Positions 3,510 to 54,015 of a stretch of DNA of 64,000 bases are shown here, piece after piece. Where the stretch lies: positions 62,001 to 126,000 of IMG/VR virus record IMGVR_UViG_3300028394_002328. The stretch is one strand, 5' to 3'. Each line of letters opens with the position of its first letter. Positions within the stretch are counted from its first letter, which is position 1. Position numbers and translations under genes: made by a program. The stretch comes from a virus. Under the pieces are notes generated by a model. It was not told the DNA's origin. It was given only the letters and a program-made list of their open reading frames with translations, and ran no database searches.

Positions 3510-4661
3510 ATGAATAATTTTATAGTTTATAACCCATCAACTTTGGATGGGACAGTATACAATATATTTTTTAATATTTTTGGTAGATATACAGATATCG
3601 TAGAAGATGTTAAACTGTTTAGTGGTATTTCAGTCTTAACATTAAGAGAAGATTTATTGTTAACAAAAAATCCACTAATGTTTAATTATTATGAAATTTA
3701 CATGTACAGAAAATCTAAAGGGTTACCTACAAAAATTATCATTGATTGGTCATTAGAGGGTCAATGTCATAATTCAAGTTTATCAACTTTATTCAAGGAA
3801 AACGAACTTAATATTGATAAAGATATATTATTTGTACATAATGATTCTTCTAATAGAATTTGGGTTCCGTTTAATATTGGACAACAGTTAACTATTGATT
3901 ACCATGCATTAGATGCATATAAAAGGTGTATTATTACCTCTAGCAATTTGACCGATACTACTTTAATTAAAGATAGAAAAAATGGATTAAATTTATTAAT
4001 AGGTAAACTTAAAACAAAACACGCTAGATTTTTAGCGGCGTATTATTTTTACAAACATGATCTACTTGATAATACTATTTTAGGTTTACATGTACTACCA
4101 GAAGATATTTTAGCAAGAATGAAACAATATCCTAAGTACGATGATATAGATTTTTATAACAAAATTATACCATTAATAGGACCAGCGGATTCAGTTTCTA
4201 AAATACACGATACGGATGAAGGTTGTACAGCAGAAGATGGCGGGTGGCCATTTGATCCAAACATATTTAAAAATTCTAGTATAAGCTATGTTTGTGAAAC
4301 CTATGATATTGACAAAGGAATTTTTCCATACTTAGTGACAGAAAAATTTTATAGGTCTATTATTAATAAACATCCGTTTGTAGTGCAAGCCGGTTCAGGT
4401 CAATTAAACACTGTTAAATCTTTGGGGTTTGAAACCTTTTCATCTATCATTGATGAAAGTTATAATTATTATGATGTTCTTGATTATTCACATGTTGAAA
4501 AAACTGTATTAGCCGCAAAGGATTTTTTATCAAAACTACCTAATAATGCTGATAAAATACAAGAAATTGTAGACTATAATTATAATCGTTGGCTATCAAG
4601 AAGTAAGGATGAATATGATAAGACTACTGATTTTTTTATCAGATTTATAAATAATCAGTAA
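3510..4661 (+). CDS. Glycosyltransferase-like protein
   Basis: 383 residues. The C-terminal half has a run typical of some bacterial and viral glycosyltransferases (TEKFYRSIINKHPFVVQ, then GLNTVKSLGFETF-like and IIDESYN), where a conserved Glu in TEK and a Gly-rich turn bind the sugar nucleotide. The N-terminal half is not recognised. The start ATG lies 6 bases after the upstream stop. With the giant repeat protein at the window start it may belong to a glycan-modifying cluster. Family assignment is by motif impression only. Confidence 0.6.
   Translation: MNNFIVYNPSTLDGTVYNIFFNIFGRYTDIVEDVKLFSGISVLTLREDLLLTKNPLMFNYYEIYMYRKSKGLPTKIIIDWSLEGQCHNSSLSTLFKENELNIDKDILFVHNDSSNRIWVPFNIGQQLTIDYHALDAYKRCIITSSNLTDTTLIKDRKNGLNLLIGKLKTKHARFLAAYYFYKHDLLDNTILGLHVLPEDILARMKQYPKYDDIDFYNKIIPLIGPADSVSKIHDTDEGCTAEDGGWPFDPNIFKNSSISYVCETYDIDKGIFPYLVTEKFYRSIINKHPFVVQAGSGQLNTVKSLGFETFSSIIDESYNYYDVLDYSHVEKTVLAAKDFLSKLPNNADKIQEIVDYNYNRWLSRSKDEYDKTTDFFIRFINNQ
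4646..4653 (+). promoter_or_regulatory. T4-type late promoter (exact TATAAATA)
   Basis: TATAAATA, the full T4 late consensus, sits in the last codons of the glycosyltransferase-like gene, about 25 bases before the tmRNA acceptor piece. It is a plausible promoter for the tmRNA precursor. Confidence 0.55.
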
Positions 4662-4748
4662 ATAAAAGTATTGTTGTAAAAGCCGTGAGGAAAGAAGCAA
4701 GTCAAAAGACGGGCAAGACGGGGGTGCGAATCCCCCCACCTCCACCAA

Positions 4749-4814
4749 AAGCATACTAGAGTGACGCTGGGGAAGAGTAATAGGCAGCGGTTAATAAATC
4801 TTCCAAGTATGCTT
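4749..4814 (+). other. tmRNA intervening segment with processing hairpin
   Basis: AAGCATACT (4749-4757) and AGTATGCTT (4806-4814) are perfect 9-base inverted repeats that directly extend the tmRNA acceptor stem; an inner GGAAG/CTTCC pair (4771-4775 with 4800-4804) extends the hairpin. This loop must be excised to free the CCA end and the 5' G, presumably by host RNases. Confidence 0.75.
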
Positions 4815-4905
4815 CTGATGGGGGTGACTAGAATCGATTGACGGATGAGTAGATGAGTGGACAACACGAGAGGCGATGGACGTAATCCAAGCAAAATCTA
4901 TAAAT

Positions 4906-4938
4906 GCCAACGATGAGGTATTTTCTTTAGCCGCATGA
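4906..4938 (+). other. tmRNA tag reading frame (ANDEVFSLAA-stop)
   Basis: The resume codon GCC starts ten codons reading ANDEVFSLAA and then TGA. AND(E) at the start and LAA at the end match the proteobacterial tag consensus; LAA is the ClpXP degron. Confidence 0.92.
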
Positions 4939-4982
4939 GGCTGAGACGGAGTAGGACAGACTCTGTAAAATAACCAACCTGT

Positions 4983-5016
4983 AATAGGCCCGCAAGGGCC
5001 TATTATTTTGTTGTTT
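4983..5016 (+). terminator. Rho-independent terminator of the tmRNA
   Basis: AATAGGCCC (4983-4991), loop GCAA, GGGCCTATT (4996-5004), followed by a T-rich tract. Confidence 0.85.
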
Positions 5017-5036
5017 TTTCGCAACAAACCCAAAAT

Positions 5037-5636: not shown

Positions 5637-6737
5637 ATGGCTCAAGTATCTGACAATCTCACCGTTACTAGTGTTCAGGCCCGTAAAGCAATTCTCAAGG
5701 CTTTCAAGGTCAAGCGTCCCGTGTTTCTCTGGGGCCCTCCCGGAATCGGTAAGTCTGAGGTTGTTTCCGAAATCACCGAGGAGCTTGGTGGTTTTATGAT
5801 TGATTTGCGTATGGCGCAAATGGAACCCACTGACATTCGTGGTATTCCCTTCTTCAACAAAGACATTGGCAAGATGGACTGGGCGCCCCCGGTTGATCTT
5901 CCTGACGAGGAACTTGCTAGTCAGTATCCTATCGTCTGTCTATTCTTGGACGAGATGAACTCGGCTGCGCCTGCTGTACAGGCTGCAGGCTATCAGTTGA
6001 TTCTCAATCGCCGTGTTGGTAAGTACAAACTTCCTGACAACGTGGTTATTGTTGCGGCAGGTAACCGTGACAGTGACAAGGGTGTTACTTATCGTATGCC
6101 GATGCCCCTTGCTAATCGGTTCTTGCATATTGAAATGCGTCCTGATTTCACTTCGTGGCAGAACTGGGCAGTTAACAAAGGCATCCACAAGGATGTGGTT
6201 GGTTATCTGTCATTCGCTAAACAGGATCTCTATGACTTTGATTCAAAGTCCTCTAGCCGCGCATTTGCTACTCCCCGTAGTTGGTGCTTTGTCAGCGATT
6301 TGCTGAATGATGAAGAGGACACGGACTCTGATACCCTGTTCAACTTGGTTGCAGGTTCTGTTGGTGAAGGTCTTGCTGTTAAGTTTATGGCACACCGTAA
6401 GGTTGCAGGTCAGATGCCCGAGCCTAGCGACATTCTCGCAGGTAAGGTCAAGGAACTCCGTGTCAAGGAAGTGTCGGCAATGTACTCCCTCACGATTAGC
6501 CTGTGCTATGAATTGAAGGATGCGCTTGACAACAAGCGTGTATCTAACAAACAGTTCCATGAAATGGCTGATAATTTCTTCAGTTACATCATGGCTAACT
6601 TTGAAACTGAGTTGGTCGTAATGGGTGCAAAGGTCGCTCTGAAAACTTATCGTCTTCCGATCGAACCCAGTCAGTTGAAGCATTTTGATGACTTCCACAA
6701 GAAATACGGCAAGTACATTGTAGAAGCAGGTAACTGA
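5637..6737 (+). CDS. MoxR/RavA-like AAA+ ATPase
   Basis: 366 residues. Walker A GPPGIGKS at 33-40, Walker B CLFLDEMN at 101-108, then the sensor region VIVAAGNRD and an arginine-bearing PLANRF segment, in the order and spacing of the MoxR family. MoxR ATPases typically act as chaperones with VWA-domain partners to insert cofactors or remodel complexes. The next gene encodes just such a partner. Own promoter upstream and a terminator directly downstream, followed by a second promoter, so the two genes can be expressed separately. Role in the phage cycle unknown. Confidence 0.9.
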   Translation: MAQVSDNLTVTSVQARKAILKAFKVKRPVFLWGPPGIGKSEVVSEITEELGGFMIDLRMAQMEPTDIRGIPFFNKDIGKMDWAPPVDLPDEELASQYPIVCLFLDEMNSAAPAVQAAGYQLILNRRVGKYKLPDNVVIVAAGNRDSDKGVTYRMPMPLANRFLHIEMRPDFTSWQNWAVNKGIHKDVVGYLSFAKQDLYDFDSKSSSRAFATPRSWCFVSDLLNDEEDTDSDTLFNLVAGSVGEGLAVKFMAHRKVAGQMPEPSDILAGKVKELRVKEVSAMYSLTISLCYELKDALDNKRVSNKQFHEMADNFFSYIMANFETELVVMGAKVALKTYRLPIEPSQLKHFDDFHKKYGKYIVEAGN

Positions 6738-6740
6738 TCA

Positions 6741-6765
6741 AAGGGGAGGCAACTCCCCTTTTTTC
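6741..6765 (+). terminator. Rho-independent terminator after MoxR gene
   Basis: AAGGGGAG, loop GCAA, CTCCCCTT followed by TTTT. Confidence 0.88.
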
Positions 6766-6767
6766 AT

Positions 6768-6796
6768 TTGCAATTAAATACGGTATATGTTACAAT
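6768..6796 (+). promoter_or_regulatory. Sigma70-type promoter for the VWA gene
   Basis: TTGCAA (6768-6773), 17 bp, TACAAT (6791-6796), followed by an SD AAAGGAG before the ATG at 6825. Confidence 0.75.
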
Positions 6797-6824
6797 ATAG
6801 CATATATACGATAAAGGAGTAGGT

Positions 6825-8108
6825 ATGAGCGAAGTAATTGCCCCGACTAAAAAGCGTAAACGCAGTAAAAAATTTGAGAACTTGGTCGGTCCTACCGACG
6901 CTAAAGTAGACTTCAATGCCCGTGAGCGGTTGGTAACTGCCCGCATTGGTCTGCTTCTCCGTCATTCATTCTTTGGTAACCTTGCGACCCGTATGCAACT
7001 GGTTAACGCCGATGAATGGTGTAGTACAGCCGCTACCGACGGCTTGAAATTCTATTACAATTCTCGGTTCATTATGATGCTCAAGCCTAAAGAAGTTGAA
7101 TTCTTGGTTGGGCATGAAGTACTACATGTGGTCTACGATCATATCGGTCGTCGAGGCACCCGCGATCCCCAGCTTTGGAATATTGCTGATGACTACGCCG
7201 TTAATGCCGACCTGAAACGGCACAAGGTCGGTGAGTTTATCAAAACAGTTCCTTGTTTGTATGAAGCAAAGTACGACGGTAAGTCTGCCGAAGAAATCTA
7301 TGATGACCTTTATGAGAAGGCAGAAAAGATTAACGTCGAGGATCTTATCGACCAAATGATTGATGATCATATGGAAGGTGAAAGTCAAGGCGAGAGTGAC
7401 GGCGAAGAGGTTGACGGTAGTGGTAAGGTTAAAGGTCGTCCTAAGATGAGCCCTGAGGAGCGTGAGCGTGTCCGTCAGGAAGTCAAGCAGGCTATCATCA
7501 ATGCCGCACAAGGTGCAGAAGCAGGTTCTGTTCCTAAAGGTGTTGAGCGGTTGATCAAGCATCATACTAACCCAGTTATGCCTTGGCGTGAATTGATTCA
7601 AACTAATTTGACAAGTGCTATTCGTACCGACTTTAGTTTCATGCGTCCTAATCGTCGCGGTTGGCACATGGATGCTATCATGCCTGGTATGACCCCGGGT
7701 GAAGAAATTGATGTTGTAGTTAGTCTTGATATGTCAGGGTCTATCACTGATAAACAAGGACAGGCATTCTTGGGTGAGATTGCAGGTATGATGGATGCCT
7801 TTGACGGATACAAAGTACATGTATTCTGCTTTGATACAGAGACTTATAATCCGCAAGACTTCACTAGCGAGAACATGGACACAATTGATTCATATGAACC
7901 AGTTGGTGGAGGTGGTACTGACTTTGATTGTGTCTTTGGTTATCTTAAAGAAAATGCAATTGTACCCAAACGTTTGATTGTGTTCACGGATGGCTACCCT
8001 TGTGGTAGTTGGGGAGATCCTGATTATTGTGATACGACATGGATCATTCACGGTGATAAGGATCCTAATCCCCCGTTTGGTACATTCGCAATTTATGACG
8101 AGAAGTGA
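6825..8108 (+). CDS. DUF2201-type VWA/metallopeptidase-like protein, MoxR partner
   Basis: 427 residues in two parts. The N-terminal part has HEVLH (residues 97-101), a zinc-peptidase HExxH motif, in the context FLVGHEVLHVVYDHIGRR. An acidic linker follows. The C-terminal part is a VWA-like domain with MIDAS residues DMSGS (from residue 302), the Thr of GGGTDFD and the Asp of FTDGYP. This matches the putative metallopeptidase plus VWA architecture encoded beside MoxR ATPases in bacteria. Proteolytic activity is not established for the family. The N-terminal KKRKRSKK patch is strongly basic. Confidence 0.88.
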   Translation: MSEVIAPTKKRKRSKKFENLVGPTDAKVDFNARERLVTARIGLLLRHSFFGNLATRMQLVNADEWCSTAATDGLKFYYNSRFIMMLKPKEVEFLVGHEVLHVVYDHIGRRGTRDPQLWNIADDYAVNADLKRHKVGEFIKTVPCLYEAKYDGKSAEEIYDDLYEKAEKINVEDLIDQMIDDHMEGESQGESDGEEVDGSGKVKGRPKMSPEERERVRQEVKQAIINAAQGAEAGSVPKGVERLIKHHTNPVMPWRELIQTNLTSAIRTDFSFMRPNRRGWHMDAIMPGMTPGEEIDVVVSLDMSGSITDKQGQAFLGEIAGMMDAFDGYKVHVFCFDTETYNPQDFTSENMDTIDSYEPVGGGGTDFDCVFGYLKENAIVPKRLIVFTDGYPCGSWGDPDYCDTTWIIHGDKDPNPPFGTFAIYDEK

Positions 8109-52533: not shown

Positions 52534-52566
52534 ATAAATATATTCATATACTCTCATGGTGAGAGT
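52534..52566 (+). promoter_or_regulatory. Late promoter and leader hairpins
   Basis: ATAAATA (52534-52540), then ACTCTCA/TGAGAGT hairpin (52550-52566) and a GCGG/CCGC stem further on; AAGGAG precedes ATG 52624. An unusually long (about 80-base) structured late leader. Confidence 0.65.
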
Positions 52567-52623
52567 TTATGCGGTCCCCGCCGCGTAGTGGCTAGAACCC
52601 ACACATAATAAGGAGAAAAACAA

Positions 52624-54015
52624 ATGGGACGCCCTTTAAAGATTGCCAAAGCGGTAATGTTAACATTGACCGCAACAAATGGTACAACTGAAGTTGTTAC
52701 AGTAAGTGAAAATTTAAATACTCTAAATGTTATCGCAGGAATGCCTTTTGTAGTTGCTACTACAACAGGAGGACTAACAGCAGGTACAACATATTGGATT
52801 TTAGAAGTACTAACAGCTAATACTTTTACAGTATCAGCTACAGAAACAAGTGCTAATCCTAGTTATACTAAGGTTAACCTATCAAATGCTGGTCCAGTAA
52901 CAGTGAAGGTATCGGTTGGTGTAGTAGACACAGGTTTTCAAAATCCTGATTCTACAGCACAATCAGGTGGTACATCTACTAACCCTGGCGCAAGTTATGG
53001 TGTAGTTGGTGGTAACACAACAATTTATGGCTCACAAGTATTAACACGAGTTGCTATTGGTATTCAAGGAACAGGTACAATTTATGCATCTACTGGTAGT
53101 GCATTAGTATTTGGTGATGCTAATACTAATTTTGATACTGACTTTGTAGCAGGTACTGCTATTCAAGTAGGTACTGCTAACATTAATGGTACATCTACTA
53201 ATTATGCTGATGTAGGATTTGTCTCTTCTACGGGCAACACTGATGTAACAGTGGCTAATACTGTCGTATCAGGTAGCTTTATTGGTGTGTCAGCTGGTGA
53301 TGCTACTAATTTATCTGCAAACAATCCAATACAATTTGTTGCTAATATAGGTACTCTAGTAGCAGGCACAACATATTTTGTTAAGACTATTGCTAATTCG
53401 GCTGCGTTTACTGTTTCAACATCAATTGGTGGCCCTGCATTAGCAATGACAGCAAATACTTCTGCAACTACTGGAAGACAGCAAGTTGCATATTTAGCTG
53501 GTCCGGCATCACTTGTAAATGCAGTTGGCAATACGTATGTTTATGCAAATGATGAAGCAGGATATATTGTTCGTCAAAAAGGTAAGCAAAAATATCTAGT
53601 AACAGGTTTAACATCTGGTTTAACTGCACAATGTACAACAGCTAATGTTGCAAATGCAGCATTAACACCAAATACAATGAGTATTACTGCAACAACAGCA
53701 GCACCTGCAACAGTGTATGTACAGTCAGTAAACAATTATCAAACAGAATTGTTTGAAGTTACAGTTGCTCCTAGTGCATTGTCAGTTGGTACAGCTTACA
53801 CCATTACTAGTGTAGGTACTACAAATTGGACAGCAGTTGGTGCTTCTGCTAATATTACTGGTGTATCATTCGTTGCAACTGCAACTGGTTCAGGTACAGG
53901 TACAGCGATATTGACTACAGCGAATCCTGATGTTATTGCTACATTCAACACAGCATACGCTGCTAATACATACGATGGACAACCTAACCCAATCGTTGTA
54001 GTTAATAACGCATAA
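52624..54015 (+). CDS. Virion structural protein (463 aa)
   Basis: MGRPLKIAKAVMLTLTATNG; beta-rich and Thr/Ala/Asn-rich with repeating TAGTTY and AFTVST elements. The segment YIVRQKGKQKYLVTGL is a conserved marker of phage virion proteins that start MGRPL. Probably a head or tail decoration protein. Long structured leader suggests regulated, high expression. Confidence 0.82.
   Translation: MGRPLKIAKAVMLTLTATNGTTEVVTVSENLNTLNVIAGMPFVVATTTGGLTAGTTYWILEVLTANTFTVSATETSANPSYTKVNLSNAGPVTVKVSVGVVDTGFQNPDSTAQSGGTSTNPGASYGVVGGNTTIYGSQVLTRVAIGIQGTGTIYASTGSALVFGDANTNFDTDFVAGTAIQVGTANINGTSTNYADVGFVSSTGNTDVTVANTVVSGSFIGVSAGDATNLSANNPIQFVANIGTLVAGTTYFVKTIANSAAFTVSTSIGGPALAMTANTSATTGRQQVAYLAGPASLVNAVGNTYVYANDEAGYIVRQKGKQKYLVTGLTSGLTAQCTTANVANAALTPNTMSITATTAAPATVYVQSVNNYQTELFEVTVAPSALSVGTAYTITSVGTTNWTAVGASANITGVSFVATATGSGTGTAILTTANPDVIATFNTAYAANTYDGQPNPIVVVNNA

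What the first reader, a model, noticed from the sequence alone, without database searches (positions are those of the whole stretch)
4646..5016. Phage-encoded, circularly permuted tmRNA with its own late promoter
The 3' acceptor piece (T-arm, CCA) precedes the 5' piece, with a 72-base intervening segment whose ends pair over 9 bases. All seven acceptor-stem pairs form, including G3:U70, and the tag frame reads ANDEVFSLAA. An exact TATAAATA late box lies upstream. One-piece tmRNAs are known in phages; a permuted form, apparently under phage late control, is unusual and could redirect stalled-ribosome products or proteolysis.
Basis: partly seen in the sequence, partly recalled or inferred. Interest (0 to 1): 0.92.

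Follow-up and report, generated by a model that had tools for sequence, protein, structure and literature searches.

The report
Phage two-piece tmRNA with Clp proteases
A giant bacterial virus carries a real two-piece tmRNA (an RNA that frees stuck ribosomes and tags the unfinished proteins for destruction), a type already known in viruses, but here the same virus also encodes the proteases that would destroy the tagged proteins.

Summary
Window 4646-5019 is a complete circularly permuted tmRNA transcription unit: RF04321 111.5 bits and RF01850 (beta) 98 bits, both above gathering. It has seven of seven acceptor pairs including G3:U70, a 72-nt intervening segment with a 9-bp end stem, tag ANDEVFSLAA, a TATAAATA box upstream and an intrinsic terminator.

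The claim that a permuted phage form is unusual does not hold. Two-piece tmRNAs were already reported in phages (53 of 133 unique structures, PMC9004378). Here 35 of 80 records from related T4-like jumbo phages have one, all upstream of the same AAA-ATPase on the same strand.

What is added: the same 335-kb phage encodes ClpX, ClpP, ClpA, ClpS and Hsp20, but no recognisable SmpB. Its ClpX keeps all six residues that read the ssrA tag. Two relatives whose tag ends in LAV have a ClpX altered at exactly those loops. The most likely role is late ribosome rescue using host AlaRS and SmpB, with tagged fragments degraded by host and phage ClpXP/AP. The RNA itself is a new member of a known kind.

The parts
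4646..4653 (+). TATAAATA, T4-type late promoter box (inferred start of transcription about 4659-4661)
   Evidence: sequence; ATAAATA-class boxes strongly concentrated upstream of this phage's genes
4672..4677 (+). TGTTGT, 5' strand of the second helix joining the two RNA pieces
   Evidence: pairs with 4861-4866; covaries T-A/C-G in 26 of 26 tmRNAs
4660..4747 (+). acceptor piece of the tmRNA (3' tRNA-like half, encoded first); 5' end inferred
   Evidence: RF01850 4649-5008 and RF04321 4686-4938
4720..4736 (+). T-arm GGGGG-TGCGAAT-CCCCC
4737..4747 (+). 3' acceptor strand CACCTCC, discriminator A, encoded CCA
4748..4819 (+). 72-nt intervening sequence with 9-bp terminal stem, no ORF; predicted to be removed
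4820..4826 (+). 5' acceptor strand GGGGGTG with G3 (pairs U70)
4820..4980 (+). coding piece of the tmRNA (5' tRNA-like half plus mRNA-like part); 3' end inferred
   Evidence: RF01850 alignment
4861..4866 (+). ACAACA, 3' strand of the second inter-piece helix
4906..4938 (+). tag reading frame ANDEVFSLAA-stop (resume codon GCC)
4981..5019 (+). intrinsic terminator (11-bp stem, GCAA loop, T-run)

Best explanation
A T4-like jumbo phage transcribes a circularly permuted tmRNA from its own late promoter. Host tRNA-processing enzymes would remove the 72-nt intervening segment and leave a two-piece RNA held by the acceptor stem and the 4672/4861 helix. Host AlaRS charges it (G3:U70) and host SmpB loads it on stalled ribosomes. 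Nascent chains receive ANDEVFSLAA, and the stalled ribosomes are recycled for virion protein synthesis when host ssrA transcription is failing. Tagged fragments are degraded by ClpXP/ClpAP, and part of that capacity is phage-encoded, since the same genome carries ClpX, ClpP, ClpA and ClpS. Shown here: the gene, its anatomy, its conservation across the phage clade, the Clp genes, and the conservation of ClpX's tag-reading residues. Inferred: expression, processing, charging, SmpB use, tagging and degradation.
For: RF04321 and RF01850 above gathering. Intact anatomy with terminator. Helix covariation. Present in 35 of 80 related records and in 8 of 9 contigs over 200 kb, always upstream of the same ATPase on the same strand in 36/36 including the window. 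Late-box enrichment. Tag pattern ANDEVF-[S/A/T/P]-LAA found in only 2 stretches of 84,980 bacterial and archaeal species genomes, both on small MAG contigs. ClpX passes the NCBIfam equivalog cut-offs (481.6 against 370.75), ClpP passes PRK00277, ClpS and ClpA match. Tag-reading residues Y153, V154, T199, V202, R228, H230 are all kept against E. coli ClpX (roles from PMC7652416). ClpP occurs in 6 of 6 relatives of 286 kb or more, all with tmRNA.
Against: No transcript, processing or tagging data. No gp55 or gp45 homologue recognised. No SmpB in the record, and tblastn finds none in it or in four more large relatives. The P2 helix next to the T-arm is weaker than in most relatives (hand inspection; pair marks). 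Many relatives place a sigma-70-like promoter over the late box, so late-only control may be particular to this phage. The host is unknown.
Confidence: 0.8

Rival explanations
1. The tag is used to redirect proteolysis: the phage deliberately tags host or phage proteins for its own ClpXP, or shields them from host ClpXP.
For: The phage encodes ClpX, ClpA, ClpP and ClpS. In two relatives with LAV-ending tags the phage ClpX is altered at the tag-reading loops. The ANDEVF-type tag is nearly absent from bacteria.
Against: In this phage the tag end LAA and the ClpX tag-reading loops are canonical, so host ClpXP should read it too. tmRNA acts on stalled ribosomes, not on chosen proteins.
Confidence: 0.15
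2. A passenger or decaying copy of host ssrA picked up by the phage, without function.
For: Best match is the betaproteobacterial model. P2 looks weaker and the score is lower than in many relatives.
Against: All stems, the tag frame, promoter and terminator are intact. It is conserved in place across a diverse clade with compensatory changes.
Confidence: 0.04
3. A decoy that blocks host trans-translation, as reported for the tag-less tmRNA-like RNA of mycobacteriophage DS6A.
For: Precedent cited in PMC11915505.
Against: The tag reading frame with stop and the LAA degron is intact and conserved in kind across relatives.
Confidence: 0.03

Closest known systems
Permuted (two-piece) tmRNA, Rfam RF04321 / RF01850 (Betaproteobacteria type)
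   Same: order acceptor piece - IVS - coding piece, G3:U70, T-arm, CCA, IVS end stem, tag with LAA end, terminator hairpin
   Different: phage-encoded, T4-type late box as the only evident promoter, tag nearly absent from bacterial genomes, weak P2
Two-piece tmRNA of methylophage Melnitz and pelagimyophages (PMC9004378)
   Same: T4-like myophage with a permuted tmRNA
   Different: Melnitz type is alphaproteobacterial, behind an early promoter with a glutamine riboswitch; the present one is beta-type, with a late box and terminator. The text of that paper does not mention ClpX or ClpP
Sinorhizobium jumbo phage AP-J-162 (PMC11242549)
   Same: related jumbo phage group with a tmRNA and six Clp proteins including ClpX, plus Hsp20
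   Different: tmRNA form and tag not analysed there; Clp proteins discussed for replication control, not linked to the tmRNA in the passages read
Huge phages of Al-Shayeb et al. 2020 (PMC7162821)
   Same: tmRNAs reported in large metagenomic phages
   Different: some of those also carry SmpB; none found here. Clp proteases are not mentioned in that text

Membership tests
permuted tmRNA (RF04321/RF01850) | covariance-model score above gathering | tested here: met
   111.5 against 47 bits; 98 against 84 bits
permuted tmRNA (RF04321/RF01850) | 3' acceptor half with CCA encoded before the 5' half, separated by an IVS | tested here: met
   4737-4747, 4748-4819, 4820-4826
permuted tmRNA (RF04321/RF01850) | tRNA-Ala-like acceptor with G3:U70 | tested here: met
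   7/7 pairs; G:U in 26/26 relatives (that set was chosen for 7/7 pairing)
permuted tmRNA (RF04321/RF01850) | tag frame ending in a hydrophobic AA degron and stop | tested here: met
   ANDEVFSLAA-stop
permuted tmRNA (RF04321/RF01850) | helices joining the two pieces beyond the acceptor stem | tested here: met
   TGTTGT/ACAACA, covarying; the inner P2 segment is weak
permuted tmRNA (RF04321/RF01850) | pseudoknots of the mRNA-like part | tested here: inconclusive
   the model aligns through the region with several broken pairs
permuted tmRNA (RF04321/RF01850) | mature RNA in two pieces | not testable with these tools
   needs end mapping of RNA from infected cells
T4-type late promoter | late box upstream at promoter distance, enriched genome-wide upstream of genes | tested here: met
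   4646-4653; 64 of 110 ATAAATA copies in upstream windows
T4-type late promoter | gp55/gp45-dependent transcription machinery | tested here: inconclusive
   no hit, but the PHROG controls did not ring either; phmmer weak only
[quoted passage not shown]
ssrA-ClpXP tag-and-degrade pathway | own SmpB | tested here: not met
   PF01668 absent, rings in 10 control genomes; tblastn negative in five large records

The most novel reading that the evidence does not exclude
These jumbo phages run a phage-owned tagging and degradation pathway in which the phage tmRNA tag and the phage ClpX co-evolve. In lineages whose tag has become a 27-29 residue peptide ending in LAV/FAV, the phage ClpX has lost the residues that read Ala-Ala (T199/H230 equivalents) and would read only the phage's own tag, making a private tag-protease pair. 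The window's phage would represent the ancestral state, still compatible with host ClpXP.
Probability: 0.35. Interest if true: 0.87.

Novelty: new member of a known kind. Interest (0 to 1): 0.5.

Why it matters
It is usually unclear what phage tmRNAs are for. Finding this one in a genome that also encodes ClpX, ClpP, ClpA and ClpS, with tag ends and ClpX tag-reading loops that differ together in relatives, gives a concrete and testable answer: some phages may own the whole path from stalled ribosome to degraded fragment. It also shows that ARAGORN-only annotation misses such genes.

Tried and rejected
ARAGORN as a test: it finds nothing in the window, although both Rfam models do. DNA similarity to known phages: only short T-arm matches, to Brevundimonas and Caulobacter phages, and no megablast relatives. 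Late sigma factor: phrog_12791 and phrog_223 negative without a ringing control; the weak phmmer hit L134:5301-6461 is not supported by PHROGs or Pfam. Nearest bacterial tmRNA by a class-wide RF01850 search: one genome over cut-off, with a different tag (ANDDNFEVALAA), so no host could be named. The idea that the tag redirects proteolysis in this phage was rejected as the main reading because its LAA end and its ClpX loops are canonical. More tag/ClpX pairs were sought by two further ClpX scans, but apart from G033 (already known) no new contig could be tied to a tag by name.

Full report
WHAT IS THERE. The window is bases 62001-126000 of a 335,035-nt IMG/VR virus record. Terminase, UvsX, UvsY, gp32-like SSB, primase and helicase, and tail sheath hits mark it as a T4-like jumbo myovirus. 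Its terminase is 49% identical to Pseudomonas phage PA5oct and 43% to Cronobacter phage GAP32. At 4646-5019 lies one complete transcription unit. It consists of a TATAAATA box, the acceptor piece, a 72-nt intervening sequence, the coding piece with the tag ANDEVFSLAA, and an 11-bp terminator stem with a T-run. Two Rfam models find it above gathering, with the beta type the best of the lineage models. ARAGORN misses it.

IS IT INTACT AND SELECTED. The acceptor stem has seven pairs with G3:U70. The T-stem has five pairs, CCA is encoded, and the tag ends LAA-stop. In 26 tmRNAs from viral contigs the T-stem and a second inter-piece helix (window 4672-4677 with 4861-4866) are kept, with compensatory changes at several pairs. 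The acceptor stem was a selection criterion for that set and so does not count there. The helix next to the T-arm (P2) is weaker in the window than in most relatives, judged by hand from the aligned sequences.

SPREAD. A scan with the AAA-ATPase that follows the tmRNA gave 80 related records. RF04321 is over its cut-off in 20 of 50 and 15 of 30 of them, many being fragments. Of nine contigs over 200 kb, eight have it. In all 36 cases, window included, the tmRNA lies upstream of the ATPase on the same strand, 0.7-26 kb away; two of these count across a contig end. The gene is therefore an old, conserved part of this clade and not a recent pick-up.

PROMOTER. ATAAATA-class boxes are concentrated upstream of this phage's genes: 64 copies in 290 windows of 120 nt, against 110 on both strands of the whole record. 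The TATAAATA at 4646 fits this class. Relatives often carry a box 59-79 nt before the acceptor strand (window: 91), and several have TTGACA and TATAAT-like hexamers over it, which suggests early plus late expression there (no background was computed). The late sigma factor itself was not recognised, so late control is inferred from the motif.

TAG. A degenerate pattern for ANDEVF-[S/A/T/P]-LAA matches only two stretches in 84,980 bacterial and archaeal species genomes. Both are small contigs of MAGs: one carries a PhoH-like gene and the other MAG holds three strong permuted tmRNAs, so phage origin is likely but not proven. The tag is thus essentially a phage tag, while keeping AND and LAA.

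THE CLP GENES (OUTSIDE THE WINDOW). The same record encodes ClpX (about 243.5-244.8 kb), Hsp20, ClpS, ClpP (248.6-249.2 kb) and a ClpA-like unfoldase (about 186.1-188.3 kb). ClpX passes two NCBIfam equivalog cut-offs and ClpP passes PRK00277. ClpS and ClpA are clear matches below their strict equivalog cut-offs. ClpP keeps the GQACSMG and MIHQP motifs. Against E. coli ClpX the six residues that read the ssrA tag (Y153, V154, T199, V202, R228, H230; PMC7652416) are all kept. SmpB and SspB are not found. ClpP occurs in all six relatives of 286 kb or more that were searched, all of which also have the tmRNA. ClpX, ClpS and Hsp20 were found in five of the six.

TAG AND CLPX DIFFER TOGETHER. Four phages with LAA tags (window; G033 ANDSVFALAA; G020 ANDNSTMDIALAA; G057 ANDEQFALAA) have ClpX with T199, V202, R228, H230. 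Two phages with long tags ending SLAV (G068, G074) have changed loops: S199 and Q230, and I202 and V230. Of 171 distinct viral ClpX, 94 keep T/V/H, and every ClpX with S or A at 199 has also lost H230. Because the LAV phages share a clade, this is perhaps one independent event; it is a lead, not proof. Two more scans gave no further contig, beyond G033, that could be tied to both features.

MECHANISM. Most likely, host processing enzymes, AlaRS and SmpB are used. The phage RNA adds tagging capacity late in infection, when host transcription of ssrA would fail and truncated mRNAs abound. Tagged fragments go to host and phage ClpXP/AP. Only the sequence-level steps are shown.

KNOWN OR NEW. Permuted tmRNAs in phages were reported by Buchholz et al. 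(53 of 133 unique phage tmRNA structures, PMC9004378), and RF04321 was built from permuted genes at large (PMC11915505). A jumbo phage with both a tmRNA and Clp proteins is on record (AP-J-162, PMC11242549), without the link being drawn in the passages read. The RNA is therefore a new member of a known kind. The phage-owned tag-and-degrade set and its possible co-evolution are the part worth a specialist's time.

Noticed in passing
L356, L247, L360, L251, L313, L222, L223, L346, L353, L367, L259, L320, L273 and others: In relatives the tmRNA intervening sequence holds a complete small protein gene: SD right after CCA (TAAGGA), and in most cases the stop is the TGA one base before the 5' piece. 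Products include a thioredoxin (PF00085, 4e-21), DUF2061 (3.5e-20) and PGDYG. Differences between homologues fall mostly on third codon positions, and RF04321 spans the insert. I found no report of protein genes nested there.
   Followed up: yes
L240, L248, L236, L224, L242, L249, L250, L378-L428, L703-L731: A conserved family of 27-29 residue phage tmRNA tags, (A)xxTGEVTVSGKxVKFSAR...[LF]AV, in about 80 viral contigs. It does not end in AA.
   Followed up: partly
L234 (reverse strand 1633-1713), L232, L243: Intervening sequences that contain a tRNA-like gene (ARAGORN calls a 4-base anticodon in L234) or T-arm-like pieces.
   Followed up: no
viral ClpX L612-L623, L659, L660, L674, L681, L685, L696-L701: Further ClpX variants with N or A in place of H230; the tags of these phages are unknown.
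   Followed up: no
window 52550-52626: freshwater-2 cis-regulatory RNA motif (RF02980, 65 bits) directly before the ORF at 52624.
   Followed up: no
record 266-286 kb (L133): Cluster of 18-19 tRNA genes far from the tmRNA, without tRNA-Ala.
   Followed up: no
window 5637-8108: MoxR-like AAA ATPase followed by a DUF2201 metallopeptidase/VWA protein, a conserved neighbour pair downstream of the tmRNA.
   Followed up: partly
G081 (Flavobacteriales MAG SZUA-1004): One MAG with three strong permuted tmRNAs on separate contigs, probably phage contigs in the bin.
   Followed up: no
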